64,000 nucleotides of DNA from a bacterium HR29 (GTDB lineage Bacteria > Chloroflexota > Dehalococcoidia > Tepidiformales > Tepidiformaceae): assembly GCA_002898215.1 (NCBI GenBank), contig BEIF01000001.1, positions 539,501-603,500 of the forward strand, in the 5' to 3' direction. Every line of letters begins with the position of its first letter. The stretch's first letter is position 1. Position numbers and translations under genes: made by a program. Below are positions 26,992 to 40,970 of the stretch, piece after piece. Under the pieces are notes generated by a model. That model had not been told where the DNA came from. It saw only the letters and a list, made by a program, of their open reading frames with translations, and did no database searches.

Positions 26992-29850
26992 ATGAACGTC
27001 GGGTCGATCGTCCGCTTCCGCAACCGCGACTGGGTGGTCCTGGCGAGCGATGACGCGGACACCGTCCTGCTCCGGCCGCTCACGGGCGTCAGCGAGGATG
27101 CCGTGGGTGTCCATCGGCGGCTCTCCGAACTCATCGCCTATTCAATCCCCACGGAGCGCATCGAGCCCTCCGCCTTTCCCCTACCCGACCCGTCGTCGGT
27201 GGCCGACGCCCAGAGCGTACACCTCCTCTGGCAGGCGGCTCGCCTGCTGCTGCGGGAAGGGGCGACCCCGTTCCGTTCCCTCGGGAGGATCTCGGCCCGG
27301 CCACGGACGTACCAACTCGTACCCCTCATGATGGCCCTCAGGCTCGACCCCGTCCGCCTGCTCATCGCCGACGACGTGGGCGTTGGCAAGACGGTGGAGG
27401 CCGGCCTCATCGTCCGTGAGCTGTGGGACCGGGGCGAAATTCGTCGTGTGGCGGTGCTCTGCCCACCCTACCTCTCCGACTGGTGGCGGATGGAGCTGGA
27501 GGAGAAGTTCCACCTCGAGCCTGTGGTTATCGGGCCCGGTACGGTCGGCCGCCTCGAGCGAGAAGTCCCGCCCGGGCGCACCCTTTACGAACACTTCCCT
27601 GTCCAGGTCATCAGCATCGATTTCATCAAAACCGAACGGAACCGGCCCGCGTTCCTCCTGAAGGCGCCGGAGCTCGTCATCGTCGACGAGGCCCATGGGG
27701 CGACGCCCGCGGAGTCCGGCGACCGGCACCTGCGGTACAAGCTAGTGCGGGAATTGGCCGAGGACCCCCACCGGCACCTGCTTCTACTTACGGCGACCCC
27801 CCACAGCGGCATCCCCGGAGCGTTCCAGAAGCTTCTCGGGCTCCTGAAGCCGGAGTTCGAGACGTGGGACTTCTCCAACCTCTCGGAGATGCAGCGGGCG
27901 AAGCTCGCGCGCCACTTCGTCCAGCGAACGCGAGCGGACATCGAACGCGACTGGGAGGACCGCCCCTGCTTCCCCACTCGGAAGCCGGTCGAGGTAACCT
28001 ACCGCCTCTCTCCCGCGTATTCGGAGCTCTTCTACGACGTGCATCGCTTTTGCGGGAGGATCGTCGAGAGCGGCGAGCAGCTCGAGTGGAACCGGCGGCG
28101 GATGCGGTGGTGGGGCGCTCTCGCCCTCCTCCGCTGCGTCATGTCGAGCCCCCGGGCGGCAGTCGTGGCCCTCCGGAATCGGGCCGGAGACGGGGCCCTC
28201 GAGGCCGAAGTCGACGAAGAGGACATGGCCGACGCCGTCGTCGAGCCGAGCGAACAGCTCGCCTTCGATGAGGCCCCGACGCCGCTCCTCGCCCGCCTGG
28301 AGGGCGCCCTCGAGCCGGGGGAACGTGAGGCCCTCCAACGATTCGCGCGGAAGGCGGCCGAGATCACTCGGGAGGACGACACTAAGCTCCGCGGCTGCCT
28401 CGAAGCGGTCCGCTCCCTCCTCCGCGAAGGGCATCACCCCATCATCTGGTGCTATTACGTCGAAACGGCCGAGTACGTCGCCGAGGCGATCCGCTCCGAG
28501 CTCGTCCCGGAGTTCCCCGACCTCCAGGTGGCCTGCATCACCGGCCGCCTGGACGACGACGAGCGGCGGATGAAGGTCGAGGAGCTGATGGCGGAGCACC
28601 GCCGGGTCCTGGTGGCTACGGATTGCCTGTCGGAAGGGGTGAACCTGCAGAAGGGGTTCACGGCCGTCCTCCACTACGACCTCCCTTGGAACCCGAACCG
28701 CCTCGAGCAGCGCGAGGGGCGCGTCGACCGCTTCGGCCAGGAGCGGGACGAGGTGAAGGCCGTCCGTTACTACGGCGCGGACAACCCGGTCGACGCAGCC
28801 GTCCTCCGGGTTCTCCTCAACAAGGCCGAGGAGATCCGGCGCGCGCTCGGGACGTACGTGCCCGTGCCCGAGAACGCCCAACGCGTTGTGGAGGCGCTCG
28901 TCGACGTCCTCTTCCGGCGGCGGCGTCATAGCCTCGCCCTGCAGACCGCCCTCCCGCTACAACAGGACGGCGTGGAGGAGCTGCACCGGACCTGGGAGCT
29001 CGACGCCCAGCGCGAACGAGAAAGCCGCACCCGCTTCGCCCAGCGCGCCCTGAAACCGCAGGAGGTACGGCGGGAGCTCGAGGCGACGGATGCGGTGCTC
29101 GGCGACGCCGATGCGGTCCAGAACTTCGTGCTATCCGTCGCCAAGCGGCTCCAGCTCAACATCTGGCAGTCGAAGTCGAAGGATGTCTGGAAGGTGGGGA
29201 CGGCGACCACTGGGCTCCACGGTCTCCCCGAGAGCATCCGCGAGGCGCTGCCGAGGTCGGCCGCGGATACCTGGTCGATCACCTTCACGAGCCCGCCATC
29301 CGAAGGGGCGACCTACCTCGGCCGGAATCATCCCTTCGTGACCGCCCTAGCGCGGTACGTGTTCGAACAGGCTCTCGAAGGAGTCGACGAAGCCGTCGCA
29401 GCCCGCTGCGGCGCGCTCCGCACTCGGGCGGTGAGGAAGCTCACCACGCTCCTCCTCCTTCGGCCCCGCTTCTTCCTCGGAGAGGCTGGACGCCCGCCCC
29501 TCCTCGCCGAGGAGGTCCTCGTCTGCGGCTTCGAGGGCTTCTCCGAACGGTGGCTGCGCCCCGCGGAGGCGCTCCCCCTGCTCTCCGCCGAGTCGACGAG
29601 CAACATGCCGTTGGAGGAGAAACGGGACCTCGTGTCCCTCGTCCTCGAGGAAGTGCGCGCCGCACTGACGGCGGACGCGTTGGACCATCCCCTGCGTGTC
29701 ATCCTCGCCGAGCGGGGCGAGGAGCTCGCGGAGTCACATCGGAGGGTCCGCCAGAGCGTGGGCCAGTACATCCGCGGCTTCAGCGTGCGGAGCCACTGGC
29801 CGCCCGACGTGCTCGGACTGCTCGTTCTCCAGCCCGAGGTGGGAGGATAG
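26992..29850 (+). CDS. SNF2-family helicase, DrmD-like, 952 aa
   Basis: A superfamily 2 helicase/translocase. The Walker A is DDVGVGKT at 127-134, the Walker B box DEAH at 232-235, motif III TATPHSG at 267-273, and the second RecA domain spans about 480-585 with LPWNPNRLEQREGRVDRFGQ as motifs V-VI. The remaining 350 residues are helical with no motif I know. DrmD of class 1 DISARM is a SNF2-like helicase of similar size placed directly before its methylase gene, as here. The stop overlaps the ribosome-binding site of the next gene, so the two are coupled. GGAAGGAAGG precedes the ATG. It could also be a generic HepA/RapA-type DNA translocase. Confidence 0.88.
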   Translation: MNVGSIVRFRNRDWVVLASDDADTVLLRPLTGVSEDAVGVHRRLSELIAYSIPTERIEPSAFPLPDPSSVADAQSVHLLWQAARLLLREGATPFRSLGRISARPRTYQLVPLMMALRLDPVRLLIADDVGVGKTVEAGLIVRELWDRGEIRRVAVLCPPYLSDWWRMELEEKFHLEPVVIGPGTVGRLEREVPPGRTLYEHFPVQVISIDFIKTERNRPAFLLKAPELVIVDEAHGATPAESGDRHLRYKLVRELAEDPHRHLLLLTATPHSGIPGAFQKLLGLLKPEFETWDFSNLSEMQRAKLARHFVQRTRADIERDWEDRPCFPTRKPVEVTYRLSPAYSELFYDVHRFCGRIVESGEQLEWNRRRMRWWGALALLRCVMSSPRAAVVALRNRAGDGALEAEVDEEDMADAVVEPSEQLAFDEAPTPLLARLEGALEPGEREALQRFARKAAEITREDDTKLRGCLEAVRSLLREGHHPIIWCYYVETAEYVAEAIRSELVPEFPDLQVACITGRLDDDERRMKVEELMAEHRRVLVATDCLSEGVNLQKGFTAVLHYDLPWNPNRLEQREGRVDRFGQERDEVKAVRYYGADNPVDAAVLRVLLNKAEEIRRALGTYVPVPENAQRVVEALVDVLFRRRRHSLALQTALPLQQDGVEELHRTWELDAQRERESRTRFAQRALKPQEVRRELEATDAVLGDADAVQNFVLSVAKRLQLNIWQSKSKDVWKVGTATTGLHGLPESIREALPRSAADTWSITFTSPPSEGATYLGRNHPFVTALARYVFEQALEGVDEAVAARCGALRTRAVRKLTTLLLLRPRFFLGEAGRPPLLAEEVLVCGFEGFSERWLRPAEALPLLSAESTSNMPLEEKRDLVSLVLEEVRAALTADALDHPLRVILAERGEELAESHRRVRQSVGQYIRGFSVRSHWPPDVLGLLVLQPEVGG

Positions 29851-29852
29851 CC

Positions 29853-34046
<4,194 letters not shown>

Positions 34047-34194
34047 ACCGCGTCAGGGTGACTGGCGGCCGGCACCAAGGTGGTTGTAGCGAGCGTTCCC
34101 TCCGGGCTCGACGGCGACCGTATACCTTCCTTGTCGGGCTTGCCGCGTCTGGAGGAAGTATCCTCAACCCGTCGAGTGGCACCGGGAGGTAGGA

Positions 34195-35742
34195 ATGGGC
34201 ACGGTCGAGACCACCATGGCGCCGGTTCGGAACCTTGTCGACCAGGTTGCCGAGGCACAGCTCCGGCTCCCCGAAATCCAGCGCGCGTACGTCTGGACGC
34301 GGACACAGGTTCGAGACCTGCTCGACTCGCTCTACCGCGGCTACCCCGTCGGTACGGTGCTCATCTGGGAGACGGACGAGGAGCTCCGCTCGCGGACCGT
34401 CGAAGCGCCCGTCTCGACCCGCTCGTCGTCTTCTTCGAACGGTGGCCGGTTCCTCCTCGACGGGCAACAACGGCTCACGTCACTCGCGAAGGTGTTCGTG
34501 ACCCGCGAAGTCGACATCCGCTTCAACATCGAGACGGAGGAATTCCAGGTCGCGAACGCTGCCGTCTGCTCCGACCCGCGGTTCGTGCCGGTCTCGGACG
34601 TCTTCCAGAAGGGGGCCGTTTCGGTCGCCCTCGAGCGCGACCTTCTCTCCCGTCCCGACCGCGAACTGATTCTTTCCCGCCTGAACAAACTGGAGAGAAT
34701 TGCCGACTACCCCGTTCCGGTCCATGTGCTCAAGGGCTTCGACTACGAGGAGGTGACCGATATCTTCGTCCGGGTCAACTCCAAGGGCACACGGCTGCGG
34801 GAAGCGGAGCTTGCCATCGCCCGGCTGGCCTTCCGCTTGCCGGGCATGGTGACGGACGAGCTGGGAGCCTTTCGGGACCGCCTTGCCATCGCGAACTTCG
34901 ACATCGAACTGCGATTCCTCGTCCGCGCCCTAACCGCCGTGGCCACCGGCCAAAGCGGCTTCCGCCAGCTGGCGTTCGTTCCCGAGGAGACGCTCCGTGA
35001 GGCGTGGCGGAAGACGCGGCGAGCTCTGGAATACTTCCTGAACCTGCTTCGCCAGAACCTTGGCATCGAATCGGCAGATTGGCTGCCGTCTCTCAACGCC
35101 ATCGTCGTTCCAGTGGCCTATCTCGCACGTCACGATGACCCGCGTGAGGCGGACACGGTCGGCCTCCTCCGATGGTTCGTGCTCGCGTCCACCTGGCAGA
35201 GGTATGCCGGAGCCGCCGAAACTGCCATGGACCAGGATTTGCGGGCCCTCGAATCACCGGAGCCCTTCAGGGTCCTCGAAGAGCATTTGGTCCAGGCGGT
35301 TGGCCGGACAACGGTTTCTGCCGACGACCTTGACGACGCGGGGTCGACCAGCTCCTTCTTCCTGCCGATGTTCCTCGCCTGCCGCCATCGAGGTGCCGTC
35401 GACTGGTGGACGGGCGTTCGGCTCAGCTCGACCAACCTCGGCACCGATCATTTGCTGGAGCTCCACCACATCTTCCCGAAGGCGCTCGTGAAGCACCGAT
35501 ACCCCAAGAGGGACGTGAACGAGCTGGCCAACCTTGCCTTCCTTTCCCGCCGCGCCAATGCCGAAATCAGTGCCAAGGAGCCGATCGAATACCTTAGCCA
35601 GATCGCGGAGGAGAGGCTCACCACCCAGTTCGTGCCGCTCGACCGTGAGCTGTGGAAGGTGGACCGATTCCAGGACTTCCTGGCCGCGCGGAGGGCATTG
35701 CTCGCACGGGGGATCAACGAGTTCCTTTCGTCGCTGCGGTGA
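34195..35742 (+). CDS. DUF262 protein with C-terminal HNH-like nuclease, GmrSD/BrxU-like, 515 aa
   Basis: The N-terminal DUF262 domain shows LRLPEIQRAYVWTRTQ at 24-39 and the hallmark LLDGQQRLTSL near 86-97, a ParB/Srx-like NTPase fold. The C-terminal part has LELHHIFPKALVKHR near 420-434 and NELANLAFLSRRAN near 442-455, which fit an HNH nuclease. This pairing is found in type IV restriction enzymes such as GmrSD and BrxU, which use nucleotides to cut phage DNA with modified bases. The gene sits 148 bp after the methylase and 155 bp before the giant helicase on the same strand, with GGGAGGTAGGA before its ATG. It may be an embedded type IV partner or a functional subunit of the locus. Confidence 0.88.
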   Translation: MGTVETTMAPVRNLVDQVAEAQLRLPEIQRAYVWTRTQVRDLLDSLYRGYPVGTVLIWETDEELRSRTVEAPVSTRSSSSSNGGRFLLDGQQRLTSLAKVFVTREVDIRFNIETEEFQVANAAVCSDPRFVPVSDVFQKGAVSVALERDLLSRPDRELILSRLNKLERIADYPVPVHVLKGFDYEEVTDIFVRVNSKGTRLREAELAIARLAFRLPGMVTDELGAFRDRLAIANFDIELRFLVRALTAVATGQSGFRQLAFVPEETLREAWRKTRRALEYFLNLLRQNLGIESADWLPSLNAIVVPVAYLARHDDPREADTVGLLRWFVLASTWQRYAGAAETAMDQDLRALESPEPFRVLEEHLVQAVGRTTVSADDLDDAGSTSSFFLPMFLACRHRGAVDWWTGVRLSSTNLGTDHLLELHHIFPKALVKHRYPKRDVNELANLAFLSRRANAEISAKEPIEYLSQIAEERLTTQFVPLDRELWKVDRFQDFLAARRALLARGINEFLSSLR

Positions 35743-35897
35743 GAGATGGGCACGTCGCGAGCCCGGGCGCGTTACTTGACCGACTGGTTGCGGAGACGAT
35801 TACGGAGTGGCACCCCATCTCCGTACCTCGGCCCAGGCGGTGTCGCGACGGGACGCGATGCGGTCCCGCGCGCAGGGCGCTCCCTGGGGGAGGCCGA

Positions 35898-38800
35898 ATG
35901 AGCGTCTTCGCCTTGCATCGGCGCTTGATGGAGGACTACGCGGATTTCATCCGCTCCTTCGTCGCCATCCGGGACGAGCGCGCCCGGCAGTTCGTCGAGC
36001 GGGAGCTCCTGGAAGCTGCGCGGCTCTGGCCGGAGCCACTCCTCCAGCTTTCGCCGGCCTACCAGCGGGACGCGAGCGTCGACGAGCTCGTCGCCGAAGG
36101 AGTCCTCCACCCGGAGGCGGCCCGGATCTTCCGCCGGGGCGAGCAGCCGCTCCGCCTCTTCCGCCACCAGGTGCAGGCGATCCGTGCGGCTCGGGCCGGC
36201 CGGAGCTTCGTGGTGACCTCCGGCACCGGCTCGGGAAAGACGCTCTGCTACCTGGTGCCCATCGTCGATACGGTGCTGAGGAACCCGGAGGTTCTTCGCC
36301 CGACTGCCATCATCGTCTACCCCATGAACGCCCTCGTGAACTCGCAGCTCCAGGCCCTGCGCGACCTGGAGGATGCGTATTGCAGGCGGACCGGCCGCCC
36401 CTTCCCCGTCCGCTTCGCCCGGTACACCGGCGATACACCCCAGGAGGAACGGGAGAGCATCCGCCGCGACCCGCCACACATCCTCCTCACCAACTACGTG
36501 ATGGCCGAGCTCATGCTGGTGCGCCCGGAGGACCACGGGCTCGTGCGCTCCCGGGCCGACCGCAACGAGCCGTTCTTCCTCGTCTTCGACGAGCTCCACA
36601 CGTACCGCGGACGGCAGGGTGCGGACGTCGCGATGCTCGTGAGACGGCTGAAGGCGCGGCTCGAATGCCCGAAGGTCATCCAGATCGGGACGAGCGCGAC
36701 CCTGGTGGCTCACCCGGACGCGACGCCCGAGGAGCGCCGGAGCACGGTGGCCGAGTTCGCCAGCACCTTCTTCGGCTCGAGACTCTCCCCCGACGACGTC
36801 ATCGAGGAGTCGCTCGAGCCGGCCACGGAGGGCGGCCCTCCCACGGCGACCGAGCTGCAAGCGGCCCTGCGGGAACCGCTCCCCGACAACCGCAAGGGCT
36901 TCCGGCGTCACGCGCTCGCCCGCTGGCTCGAGTTCGCCGTCGGGGTCGAGCCGGAAGCCGGCGGCCGTCTCCGGCGGCGCACCCCACGCACGCTCTCCGA
37001 CCTTGCCCAGGAGCTCGCCGAGGCGACGGGAGCGGCCCCACCGGAATGCCGCGCGGCACTCGAGCGCATCCTCCTCCGAGCGGCGGAGATGAACGCTTCC
37101 GAAGGGGAGAGCGCCGAGTTGAGGGAGCCGTTCTTCGCCTTCAAGCTCCACCAGTTCATCTCCCAGGGGAAGGCGCTCTACGCCACGCTGGAAGCGCCGG
37201 AAGTCCGCTCCTTCTCGATGGAGGGGGAGGTGGTCTCCGAGCGGCCGTACTTCCCGCTCCGGTTCTGCCGCCTCTGCGGGCACGAGTACTACCACGTCCT
37301 CCGGACGGACGACGCCTTCATTCCTTTTCCGGTCGGACAGGACGTGGACGAGGAGGACGCCCAGGCAGGCTACCTCACCATCGCCGACGAGTGGAGTGAG
37401 GAGCAGGTCCCCGACGAATGGTTCGATGCGCAAGGGCGGCTTCGTAGGCCGTGGAAGGACCGCGCCCCGCGTCCGGTGTGGGTGCGTCCCGATGGCACCT
37501 TCACCGACGCCGAGCCGGAGGAGGCTACCGCCACGAAGATGTGGTGGCAGGCGAAGCAGTTCTGGCTCTGCCTGCAGTGCGGCGAGTTCTACGACGGCCG
37601 GGACCAGGAGTTCCGGAAGCTCACCTACCTTTCGAGCGAAGGCCGCTCCTCTGCCACCACGGTCCTCGCGGCCTCGCTCCTCCGCCAGGCAGAGGCGACG
37701 GGCGCGGCCAGGCCCAAGCTGCTCACCTTCACCGATAGCCGTCAGGACGCTTCGCTCCAAGCCGGCCACTTCAACGACTTCGTGCGGACGGTCGTCCTCC
37801 GGTCTGCCCTCCACCGTGCGCTGCAGGAGCACGGTGAGCTCCGTTACGACGCGGTCGCCGACGAGACCGTGGCACGGATGGGCTTGGAGCTCCGCGACAT
37901 CGCCAAGAACCCCCTCCTGAGCCCCAGCTCCTCGGCCGCATCGAGCGTGTGGGAGGTCTTCACGGAGTTGACCGAATACCGGCTGTACGACGATCTCAGG
38001 AGGGGCTGGCGGGTGCTTATGCCGAACCTCGAGGAGGCGGGCCTGCTGGCCATCGACTACGAAGGGCTAGCCGAGACGTGCTCGAGAGATGATGTTTGGA
38101 GCGAAGTCCCGCTCCTCTGCGACTCCCCTCCCGAGAAGCGGGAGGAGGTCGTCCGCACGCTCCTCGACTACTTCCGCTACCACCGAGCGATTTACGCGCG
38201 GGTCTTCGAGCGCGACGACAACCTGCGCACGCTCGTCCGACGGGTCCAACAGGAGCTGAATACCTTCTGGGGCCTCGACGAGAACGAGCGGCTTACGGGT
38301 GCTCCTCGGTTCATCATCCGCGGAGGCCGAAGCGAGCTGCCGGACAAGGTGCCCATCCGTTTCCTCGGCCCGCGGACGCCCATTGGGAGGTACCTGCGGC
38401 GGGCCTTGGACCCCGACTCTCAGTCATTGAAGCTGGAGGCCATCCTACAGCCGCTCCTGACCGTGTTGACCGAGCAGGGCTTCCTGCGTGAGGAGGGGCT
38501 CCCGCGAACATCCCTTGTCGGTTACCGGCTGGATGCGGCGCGAATCGTCTGGCGGGTCGGAGACGGCACGCCGCGGCCCGACCCGGTGTACCGACGGGGC
38601 ACGGCTGAGGCCCCTCGGCGCCGGGCGAACCCCTACTTCCAGCGGCTCTACCAGGATGCGGCCGAGCAGTTCGGGTTCCTCGAGGCGCGAGAGCACACCG
38701 CCCAGGTGGTGGCCCCCGGCGAACGAGAGCGTCGGGAGCGGCGCTTCCGCTGGCTGCCTGAGGACCAGAACGACTTCAGCCTTGGCCGCCGCCTCCCATA

Positions 38801-40970
38801 CCTGGTCTGCTCCCCGACGATGGAGCTGGGCATCGACATTGCGGACCTGGACCTCGTGCACCTCCGCAACGTCCCGCCGACGCCGGCGAACTACGCCCAG
38901 CGCTCGGGCCGGGCCGGCCGGCAGGGCCAGCCAGGGCTGGTCGTGACGTTCTGCCACGCCCAGAGCCCACACGACCAATACTTCTTCCGCCACCGGGAAG
39001 AGGTGGTCGCCGGGGCGGTGCGAGCACCCCGGCTGGACCTGACCAACGAGGCGCTCGTTCGGGCCCACGTGCAGGCCGAGTGGCTGGCGCAGGTGGGGCT
39101 GCCGCTCCGCCAGTCGATTACGGACGTCATCGACACTGGGCAATCCGAGACACTCCCTCTCCGTCCGGAGGCGGCCGAGCAGATCCGACTCGGCCCGGAA
39201 TCCCTGGCAAGGGTTCGCGGGCGTATCGAACGCATCCTCGAGGCCGATAGGGAGCTTCTCGAGCGTTCGGGTTGGTACAGCGGGAGCTGGCTCGACCGCG
39301 TGCTCCAGGACGCCCCGCGAACCTTCGACCGGGCCTTCGACCGGTGGCGGGCCCTGTATTGGATCGCCCGGCGGCAACTGGACGACGCTCGAAGATTGGA
39401 GGACCAGGCCCTTAATCGACACGAGCAGGAACAGGCGCAGCAACGGCAGGTGGAAGCGCGCCGACAGTTGAACTTGTTGACCCAAATGGGGGTTGCCCGG
39501 GAGGAGGGCGACTTCTACCCGTATCGGTACCTGGCGACCGAGGGCTTCCTTCCCGGCTACAACTTCCCGGCCCTCCCGGTCCGGGCCTGGGTACCACGAG
39601 GCGAGGGAGAGTACATCTCCAGGGCTCGTTCGCTGGCAATCCGTGAATTCGCCCCGGAGAACCTCGTCTACCACGAGGGCGCCAAATGGCAGGTGGACCG
39701 GCTCTTCCCCCCGCCGGGCGGTCTTGAGGAATGGCTGTCGGTCAAGCATCTCTGTCGGCGCTGTGGCAGCTTCGCGGAGCAGGACCTCGAGCGCTGCCCG
39801 GGATGCAACCAGCTCTTCGACGGGGTACATGGGAGACGTCTCCAACTCCTCGAGCTGGTGAATGTGCGGGTCCGGCGTCGCGAGCGGATCACTTGTAACG
39901 AGGAGGAGCGCATCCGGAGGGGGTACTACATCCAGCTCGCGTTCCGCTTCGCGCCCGCGGAAACGGGGGTCCGGACGGTCGGAGCGGACGTGGTGGCCGA
40001 CGGCACAAAGTTCGCGGAGCTGGTCTACGCGCCCGCGGCCACCATCGCTTACATCAACGAAGGCTGGAGGGGGCGCCGGACCGGCTTCCTTGTGGACTTC
40101 GAGTCGGGCGAAATCTCTTCCGAGGGCGAAGCCAAGGAGGACCAGAACTCGCCCCAGAAGGGAAATAAGAAGCGCGTCTGCCTGTGGGTACAGGAGACGC
40201 AGAACCTGCTGCTCCTTCGCTTCCATGACCCGTTGGTGCGAGAGAGCGACGTGGCCCAGACGACGCTCCAACACGCTCTCAAGCGGGGGATCGAACAGGC
40301 GTTCCAGCTCGAGGATCGGGAGCTCGAGGTAGCTCGCGTCGGCGAAGGCGAGTGGAGGGCGCTGCTCTTCTACGAGGCTGCCGAAGGCGGCCTCGGCGTC
40401 CTGCGTCGGCTGGTGGAGGAGCCGCGAGCGTTGGCCGAGGCTGCCCGGGCGGCGCTCGACATCTGTCACTACGAACCCGATGGTTCGGAAAAGGCGACGC
40501 GGTGTGTTCAGGCCTGCTACGAGTGTCTGCTGAGCTACACGAACCAGCTCGAGGCTCGCAATCTCGACCGGCGGGCGGGGCGTGAATGGCTGCTCAGGCT
40601 GGCGAAGTGCGAGGTGCACCCTCGGGTCGGCCCCCGCAACCGGGACGAACACGTGACGTATCTGCGGTCCCTCTGTCAGTCGACGCTCGAGCAGCGATTC
40701 CTCGAGGCGGTGGTCGCGAGCGGACTTCGCCTTCCCGATGACGCCCAGAAGTCCATCCAGGAACCGCGCTGTATCGCTGACTTCTTCTACCAGCCGAACG
40801 TCCTCGTGTTCTGCGACGGCCCGGTGCACCAGAGCGACGGCCAGCGCCGGATCGACGAGCGTCTCCGCCGGGAGCTGCTCGTTCGCGGGTATCGGGTCAT
40901 CGTGTTCCGCTGGGACGAGGACCCGGCGACCGTGTTCCGCCAGTGGCCGGACGTCTTCGGGGTTCGGTGA
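35898..40970 (+). CDS. giant DEAD-box helicase with DUF1998-like zinc region and C-terminal nuclease signature, 1,690 aa
   Basis: Motif I TSGTGSGKT lies near 109-117, the Walker B FDELHTYRG near 229-237, GTSATL near 264, the class motif FTDSRQDASLQAGHFNDF near 612-629, and motif VI QRSGRAGRQGQ near 1000. CRRCG...CPGC near 1285-1302 and a four-Cys patch around CHYEPDG...CYECLLSY near 1523-1548 form a DUF1998-like zinc region. The last 65 residues contain ADFFYQPNVLVFCDGPVHQ and GYRVIVFRWDED, the pattern of Vsr/DUF559 endonucleases. YprA/MrfA helicases, DrmA/DrmB of DISARM and DruE of Druantia share the helicase or DUF1998 parts; size and layout are closest to DruE. A TTGACC at 35776 could give it its own promoter. 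The ATG at 35898 follows GGGGGAGG; the earlier open frame is low complexity. Confidence 0.88.
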   Translation: MSVFALHRRLMEDYADFIRSFVAIRDERARQFVERELLEAARLWPEPLLQLSPAYQRDASVDELVAEGVLHPEAARIFRRGEQPLRLFRHQVQAIRAARAGRSFVVTSGTGSGKTLCYLVPIVDTVLRNPEVLRPTAIIVYPMNALVNSQLQALRDLEDAYCRRTGRPFPVRFARYTGDTPQEERESIRRDPPHILLTNYVMAELMLVRPEDHGLVRSRADRNEPFFLVFDELHTYRGRQGADVAMLVRRLKARLECPKVIQIGTSATLVAHPDATPEERRSTVAEFASTFFGSRLSPDDVIEESLEPATEGGPPTATELQAALREPLPDNRKGFRRHALARWLEFAVGVEPEAGGRLRRRTPRTLSDLAQELAEATGAAPPECRAALERILLRAAEMNASEGESAELREPFFAFKLHQFISQGKALYATLEAPEVRSFSMEGEVVSERPYFPLRFCRLCGHEYYHVLRTDDAFIPFPVGQDVDEEDAQAGYLTIADEWSEEQVPDEWFDAQGRLRRPWKDRAPRPVWVRPDGTFTDAEPEEATATKMWWQAKQFWLCLQCGEFYDGRDQEFRKLTYLSSEGRSSATTVLAASLLRQAEATGAARPKLLTFTDSRQDASLQAGHFNDFVRTVVLRSALHRALQEHGELRYDAVADETVARMGLELRDIAKNPLLSPSSSAASSVWEVFTELTEYRLYDDLRRGWRVLMPNLEEAGLLAIDYEGLAETCSRDDVWSEVPLLCDSPPEKREEVVRTLLDYFRYHRAIYARVFERDDNLRTLVRRVQQELNTFWGLDENERLTGAPRFIIRGGRSELPDKVPIRFLGPRTPIGRYLRRALDPDSQSLKLEAILQPLLTVLTEQGFLREEGLPRTSLVGYRLDAARIVWRVGDGTPRPDPVYRRGTAEAPRRRANPYFQRLYQDAAEQFGFLEAREHTAQVVAPGERERRERRFRWLPEDQNDFSLGRRLPYLVCSPTMELGIDIADLDLVHLRNVPPTPANYAQRSGRAGRQGQPGLVVTFCHAQSPHDQYFFRHREEVVAGAVRAPRLDLTNEALVRAHVQAEWLAQVGLPLRQSITDVIDTGQSETLPLRPEAAEQIRLGPESLARVRGRIERILEADRELLERSGWYSGSWLDRVLQDAPRTFDRAFDRWRALYWIARRQLDDARRLEDQALNRHEQEQAQQRQVEARRQLNLLTQMGVAREEGDFYPYRYLATEGFLPGYNFPALPVRAWVPRGEGEYISRARSLAIREFAPENLVYHEGAKWQVDRLFPPPGGLEEWLSVKHLCRRCGSFAEQDLERCPGCNQLFDGVHGRRLQLLELVNVRVRRRERITCNEEERIRRGYYIQLAFRFAPAETGVRTVGADVVADGTKFAELVYAPAATIAYINEGWRGRRTGFLVDFESGEISSEGEAKEDQNSPQKGNKKRVCLWVQETQNLLLLRFHDPLVRESDVAQTTLQHALKRGIEQAFQLEDRELEVARVGEGEWRALLFYEAAEGGLGVLRRLVEEPRALAEAARAALDICHYEPDGSEKATRCVQACYECLLSYTNQLEARNLDRRAGREWLLRLAKCEVHPRVGPRNRDEHVTYLRSLCQSTLEQRFLEAVVASGLRLPDDAQKSIQEPRCIADFFYQPNVLVFCDGPVHQSDGQRRIDERLRRELLVRGYRVIVFRWDEDPATVFRQWPDVFGVR

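What the first reader, a model, noticed from the sequence alone, without database searches (positions are those of the whole stretch)
26992..40970. Four-gene 14-kb putative antiphage locus mixing DISARM, type IV and Druantia parts
Seen: a SNF2 helicase (DDVGVGKT, DEAH), a 1,397-residue methylase (DPACGSGHF, NPPW), a DUF262-HNH protein (LLDGQQRLTSL, HHIFP) and a 1,690-residue DEAD helicase with zinc and nuclease signatures, all on one strand. Known: class 1 DISARM has DrmD, DrmMI, DrmA, DrmB and DrmC; Druantia uses the giant DUF1998 helicase DruE, sometimes with a methylase; BrxU/GmrSD are DUF262 enzymes. Inference: the set is a methylation-based defence system with no separate DrmB or DrmC, in which the giant helicase provides both the DUF1998 region and the nuclease.
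Basis: partly seen in the sequence, partly recalled or inferred. Interest (0 to 1): 0.9.

Follow-up and report, generated by a model that had tools for sequence, protein, structure and literature searches.

The report
ARMADA antiphage locus with embedded nuclease
This is a complete copy of the recently described ARMADA antiviral system, with a gene for an enzyme of a kind that cuts chemically modified viral DNA set inside it; the system is known, and the pairing in one gene cluster is a rare but repeated and apparently undescribed variation.

Summary
In detail: four intact co-directional genes at 26,992-40,970. Three form an ARMADA Type I cassette (Bell et al. 2025 preprint, PMC12458937): SNF2/RapA-like helicase (ArmA), PglX-like adenine methylase (ArmB), and YprA-family helicase with fused DUF1998 domain and Vsr-like nuclease (ArmC). 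DISARM is excluded: the genome has no DrmB-like or PLD protein. The unusual part is the DUF262-HNH gene between armB and armC. Its nearest solved relative by sequence and fold is BrxU, a modification-dependent restriction enzyme that is likewise inserted in a BREX operon beside the methylase. Codirectional DUF262 genes abut ARMADA cassettes in four more sampled loci, at different positions and on separate branches; a fifth is divergent, a sixth a decayed relic. Related loci carry other genes in that slot, and several C-A-B cassettes are followed by McrBC. Most likely ARMADA attacks unmarked DNA while the DUF262 enzyme covers modified phage DNA. The partnership is inferred, not shown.

The parts
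26992..29850 (+). armA-like gene: SNF2/RapA (BrxHII-like) helicase, 952 aa
   Evidence: PADLOC PDLC02853 604.8 bits full length, DrmD 302 bits, Helicase_C/SNF2 in Pfam; below the NCBIfam DrmD cut-off (345 vs 610 bits); homologue next to armC in most ARMADA loci examined
29853..34046 (+). armB-like gene: PglX/DrmMI-like adenine-specific DNA methylase, 1397 aa, DPACGSG and NPPW intact
   Evidence: Eco57I 8e-19, N6_Mtase 3e-11; DrmMI 293 bits; motifs
34195..35742 (+). DUF262-HNH gene (GmrSD/BrxU-like putative modification-dependent endonuclease), 515 aa, in the armB-armC gap (148 and 155 bp spacers)
   Evidence: GmrSD_N 2e-27; PDC-M55C 139 and HEC-05 137 bits; profile to BrxU 7p9k 7e-46 over full length; predicted fold best match BrxU 1.5e-15; DGQQR invariant and HHxxP conserved in homologues; GC 0.641 against 0.675-0.686 in its neighbours
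35898..40970 (+). armC-like gene: YprA-family DEAD helicase with MZB/DUF1998 and C-terminal Vsr/DUF559-like nuclease, 1690 aa
   Evidence: DEAD 6e-23, Helicase_C, MZB 3e-10; full-length homologues at about 34-60% identity; predicted C-terminal 500 residues match MrfA (3.7e-9) and DrmB (3e-5); nuclease positions E408, D438, D450-G451, H454 of the modelled piece invariant or nearly so
39468..40967 (+). C-terminal 500 residues of the armC product that were modelled: OB/CON/DUF1998 canopy and Vsr-like nuclease
   Evidence: AlphaFold2 mean pLDDT 83 with 25 sequences, Foldseek

Best explanation
The locus is an ARMADA Type I cassette in the A-B-C gene order with a BrxU-like DUF262-HNH enzyme inserted between armB and armC, making a two-layer defence locus. 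Layer 1 (machinery shown by homology, mechanism inferred from ARMADA and DISARM): ArmB methylates adenines, which most likely marks self DNA. The ArmA and ArmC motors engage invading DNA that lacks the mark or exposes single strands. The Vsr-like domain fused to ArmC cuts it, directly and without killing the cell, as reported for an E. coli Type II system. Layer 2 (inferred from family): the DUF262-HNH protein binds and hydrolyses a nucleotide through its DUF262 domain and uses the HNH domain to cut phage DNA with modified bases, the class of phage that can evade methylation-based discrimination. This is the published division of labour between BREX and BrxU.
For: ArmC lies inside the Type I-like clade in two trees, apart from Type II and Druantia III references. 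All three cassette genes are intact with catalytic motifs. The gene order A-B-C and single C-terminal Vsr-like nuclease match the published Type I description. The DUF262 protein matches BrxU over its full length in sequence and is its best fold match, with nucleotide and HNH motifs conserved. brxU is likewise not a core BREX gene and is inserted next to pglX in pEFER, where it cuts modified DNA and complements BREX (PMC8565348). DUF262 genes recur beside ARMADA cassettes: L129 D-C-A-B with a 93-bp gap; L036 A-B-D-ArmD-C; L172 and L090 C-A-B-D; L088 divergent; and a decayed DUF262 end upstream of armC in L051. These lie on separate branches of the ArmC tree. Another modification-dependent system, McrBC, directly follows armB in several C-A-B loci (L046, L081, L113, L120, L128), and the preprint notes that association.
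Against: No experiment on this locus. DUF262 homologues are mostly found without ARMADA: none of 80 viral-contig loci has armC nearby, and most Chloroflexota homologues do not. DUF262 sits in a minority of ARMADA loci, so it is not needed for the core. Substrate specificity of DUF262 enzymes varies (SspE reads phosphorothioate), so modified phage DNA as its target is inference. Mark-and-attack by ArmB has not been shown for Type I. The promoter and terminator scan was uninformative, so a single transcript is not shown.
Confidence: 0.66

Rival explanations
1. The DUF262-HNH protein is a working subunit of this ARMADA variant: a sensor or nickase that acts in a complex with ArmA-ArmB-ArmC, as ArmD does in Type II.
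For: In-cassette, codirectional position here and in L036, where it sits with ArmD between B and C; the same slot holds ArmD-like RelE/ParE-UvrD proteins in cyanobacterial Type I-like loci. In the E. coli Type II system all four genes were essential.
Against: Close ARMADA relatives (L054, L055, L049, L043) have no DUF262. DUF262 positions relative to A, B and C vary, and its relatives act alone or with Hma/BREX elsewhere. One neighbouring copy in L051 is decayed beside an otherwise open cassette.
Confidence: 0.18
2. The DUF262 gene is an unrelated passenger that landed in an insertion-tolerant slot of a defence island; no functional partnership with ARMADA.
For: The B-C slot in related loci holds varied cargo: OLD/GajA-like and DUF4143, MBL, DUF3800, Uma2, VapC, UvrD. 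Lower GC than its neighbours. Defence genes cluster anyway.
Against: Several distinct DUF262 branches and McrBC, all modification-dependent families, recur beside the same cassette and almost always codirectionally, which is more than random cargo suggests; not tested against a formal background of defence-island neighbours.
Confidence: 0.13
3. It is a DISARM class 1 or Druantia system, or a new hybrid of the two.
For: ArmA has DrmD as second-best family and ArmB has DrmMI as best; ArmC's best PADLOC model is DruE3.
Against: No second DUF1998 protein of DrmB kind and no PLD protein in the genome, no DruH-like gene in the set, DrmD score below the curated cut-off, and ArmC groups with ARMADA Type I rather than Druantia III. 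Similarity to both DISARM and Druantia is the published hallmark of ARMADA.
Confidence: 0.03

Closest known systems
ARMADA Type I (Bell et al. 2025 preprint, PMC12458937)
   Same: BrxHII/RapA-like helicase, PglX-like methylase, YprA-family helicase with fused DUF1998 and C-terminal Vsr nuclease; the A-B-C order is reported for many archaea and cyanobacteria
   Different: A DUF262-HNH gene stands between armB and armC; the main text of the preprint does not mention DUF262 or GmrSD (supplements were not readable here)
BrxU in the pEFER BREX locus (PMC8565348)
   Same: Single-chain DUF262-HNH enzyme, full-length profile and fold match, inserted inside a defence operon beside the PglX methylase
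   Different: Only about 20% identical in the structural alignment; partner system is ARMADA rather than BREX; no activity data
HEC-05 and PDC-M55C (PADLOC candidates)
   Same: Best matching defence profiles of the DUF262 protein; homologues sit beside Hma-type helicase-methylase genes (L034, L130)
   Different: Here the host operon is ARMADA, not Hma
DISARM class 1
   Same: DrmD-like helicase and DrmMI-like methylase
   Different: No separate DrmB and no DrmC PLD nuclease
Druantia type III
   Same: Giant YprA-family helicase related to DruE
   Different: No DruH; different ArmC clade; Vsr-like rather than PLD nuclease
McrBC-ARMADA associations
   Same: A modification-dependent (type IV) restriction system directly after an ARMADA Type I cassette
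   Different: Different enzyme family and position

Membership tests
ARMADA Type I | YprA-family helicase falling in the Type I clade | tested here: met
[quoted passage not shown]
ARMADA Type I | C-terminal Vsr-type nuclease on the helicase | tested here: met
   Conserved E, D, D-G, H pattern; DUF559 only weakly by Pfam, 0.098; activity not assayed
ARMADA Type I | BrxA-like domain after RecA1 and beta-barrel zinc module before RecA2 | not tested
   The region between the two RecA domains is present and carries CxxC motifs at 457 and 558 but was not modelled
ARMADA Type I | Antiphage activity | not testable with these tools
   Shown only for E. coli Type II systems in the preprint
ARMADA Type II | GajB-like ArmD with RelE-like domain after armC | tested here: not met
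   Next gene downstream is DUF523/DUF1722 on the other strand
DISARM class 1 | Separate DrmB (DUF1998) and DrmC (PLD) genes | tested here: not met
   Only two MZB matches in the genome, no PLDc_2 match
DISARM class 1 | DrmD above the curated score | tested here: not met
   345 bits against a cut-off of 610
Druantia III | DruH partner and DruE with PLD domains | tested here: not met
   No such gene in the set; ArmC outside the Druantia III branch; no PLD match in the genome
GmrSD/BrxU DUF262 enzymes | DUF262 domain with DGQQR and C-terminal HNH | tested here: met
GmrSD/BrxU DUF262 enzymes | Cuts modified DNA, nucleotide dependent | not testable with these tools
   No biochemical data for this protein

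The most novel reading that the evidence does not exclude
The DUF262-HNH protein is a functional module of ARMADA itself: ARMADA Type I has an exchangeable subunit slot (between armB and armC, or at the cassette ends) filled by DUF262, McrBC, ArmD or other effectors, giving the same mark-reading core different sensors or effectors.
Probability: 0.2. Interest if true: 0.65.

Novelty: new variant of a known kind. Interest (0 to 1): 0.45.

Why it matters
It carries the BREX-BrxU arrangement, a modification-dependent nuclease placed inside a methylation-based defence operon, over to ARMADA, and suggests that it arose several times. That would support a general rule that self-marking systems recruit enzymes which close the loophole of modified phage DNA, and it offers a compact four-gene locus on which the rule can be tested.

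Tried and rejected
DISARM and Druantia membership (missing DrmB, DrmC, DruH). TALON/BRIGADE: not matched, since BrxHII-like and PglX-like partners and a Vsr-like nuclease are present. Insertion footprint of the DUF262 gene: the repeats near its edges are short and imperfect, the best 25 nt at 80%, and not convincing. Empty-site comparison: the downstream DUF523 neighbour has no match at 1e-30 in 36 relatives, so no syntenic site was found. Viral-contig search for armC: nothing. Viral-contig DUF262 loci: 80 kept, none with armC. The sigma-70 scan found no promoter in this G+C-rich DNA.

Full report
What is there. Four intact genes lie on the + strand at 26,992-40,970. Protein 1 (952 aa) is a SNF2/RapA-like helicase. 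Protein 2 (1397 aa) is a PglX/DrmMI-like adenine methylase. Protein 3 (515 aa) is a DUF262-HNH protein. Protein 4 (1690 aa) is a DEAD helicase with an MZB/DUF1998 domain. All quoted motifs were found. The spacers are 2, 148 and 155 bp. The flanks are a thiolase gene upstream and a DUF523/DUF1722 gene and an amine-oxidase-like gene downstream. The genome is 2.34 Mb in 4 contigs. It probably belongs to Chloroflexota, because a genome placed in the same phylum (G245:C52) appears to be the contig titled uncultured Thermomicrobium sp. (L051); this is an inference.

What it is. A 2025 preprint (PMC12458937) defines ARMADA: a YprA-family helicase with fused DUF1998 and C-terminal Vsr nuclease, plus a BrxHII/RapA-like helicase and a PglX-like methylase shared with DISARM. 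Type I usually runs C-A-B but A-B-C in many archaea and cyanobacteria; Type II runs A-B-C-D. Genes 1, 2 and 4 fit this. Full-length homologues of protein 4 were found in plasmids of Thermus, cyanobacteria and others and in 80 genome contigs, at up to 60% identity (L067). Most have A and B homologues beside them where the contig allows (69 complete cassettes, 49 C-A-B and 20 A-B-C, some loci being copies from one genome). FastTree and a quick IQ-TREE run place the window protein within the large Type I-like clade, apart from the Type II references (L134 E. coli, L148, L152) and Druantia III (L147, L149). L151, with a downstream ArmD-like gene, groups with a haloarchaeal protein (L150) at the base of the Type I side.

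Helicase C-terminus. A model of the last 500 residues (pLDDT 83, 25 sequences) matches MrfA and DrmB. The Vsr-like pattern E408, D438, D450-G451, H454 (numbering of the modelled piece) is invariant or nearly so in 25 proteins.

DISARM and Druantia excluded. The genome has no PLD match and only two MZB matches. DrmD scores 345 bits against a cut-off of 610. No DruH gene is in the set.

The DUF262 gene. Its best defence profiles are PDC-M55C and HEC-05; HEC stands for Hma-embedded candidate. A profile of 19 homologues finds BrxU (7p9k) over its full length at 7e-46, and the predicted structure (pLDDT 88) has BrxU as best fold match. DGQQR and the HH..P motif are conserved. BrxU cuts modified DNA in an ATP-dependent way, is not a core BREX gene, and sits between brxC and pglX (PMC8565348).

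Does the four-gene set recur? In the sampled ARMADA loci DUF262 genes abut the cassette at: L129, P. marcusii plasmid, D-C-A-B; L036, Chloroflexota, A-B-D-ArmD-C (ArmA confirmed); L172, same genome, C-A-B-D; L090, Myxococcota, C-A-B-D. L088 has a divergent GmrSD gene upstream of armC. L051 has a stop-riddled DUF262 end upstream of armC. These occur on separate branches of the ArmC tree, L036 being a long branch of unsure place. On the DUF262 tree the window protein is not with the ARMADA-linked proteins of L036 and L129, which argues for repeated recruitment. DUF262 is a minority feature; most loci lack it.

The slot. In A-B-C loci the B-C gap varies from none (L054, L055) to several kb and holds ArmD-like RelE/ParE-UvrD proteins (L075, L080, L093, and a piece in L073), an OLD/GajA-like ATPase with DUF4143 (L052), an MBL protein (L053), DUF3800 (L067), Uma2 (L045), VapC (L048) or a 1440-aa UvrD-like protein (L162). 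In C-A-B loci McrBC directly follows armB in L046, L081, L113, L120 and L128; the preprint notes an association of a DISARM-like cassette with McrBC.

How it most likely works. Shown by homology: the enzymes and their intact motifs. Inferred: ArmB marks self; ArmA and ArmC engage unmarked or single-strand-bearing DNA and the Vsr-like domain cuts; the DUF262 enzyme cuts modified phage DNA. Direct, non-abortive protection and the need for the ArmB NPPW motif are reported for an E. coli Type II system. Whether DUF262 is a separate layer or a subunit cannot be told from sequence.

Limits.

Noticed in passing
L075:7595-9676, L080:7597-9666, L093:7429-9576, L073:9059-9670: Cyanobacterial A-B-C loci that group with Type I carry an ArmD-like RelE/ParE-UvrD gene between armB and armC, although the preprint ties ArmD to Type II, after armC.
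   Followed up: partly
window 26992-29850: PADLOC model PDLC02853, named DpdE, matches this ArmA over its full length (605 bits), twice the best DrmD model; the model may really describe ARMADA ArmA proteins.
   Followed up: no
L036 and L172 (G119): One Chloroflexota genome holds at least three armC-like loci (contigs 46, 68, 77), two of them with a DUF262 gene in or beside the cassette.
   Followed up: partly
L067:4569-8110 and L067:15105-18861: The nearest ARMADA relative has armB broken into three frames; reading frames after armC look by eye like CRISPR-associated genes (not searched).
   Followed up: no
L151:3431-17226: Allomeiothermus plasmid with an annotated BREX Lon-like brxL gene directly before an A-B-C-D ARMADA-like cassette.
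   Followed up: no
L129:14004-27290: Paracoccus marcusii plasmid pCP157_06 carries a complete DUF262-ARMADA set in another gene order, useful for comparison tests.
   Followed up: partly
L160, L161, L158, L164: Several Chloroflexota armC homologues (51-55% identity) have no armA or armB homologue in the stretch examined.
   Followed up: no
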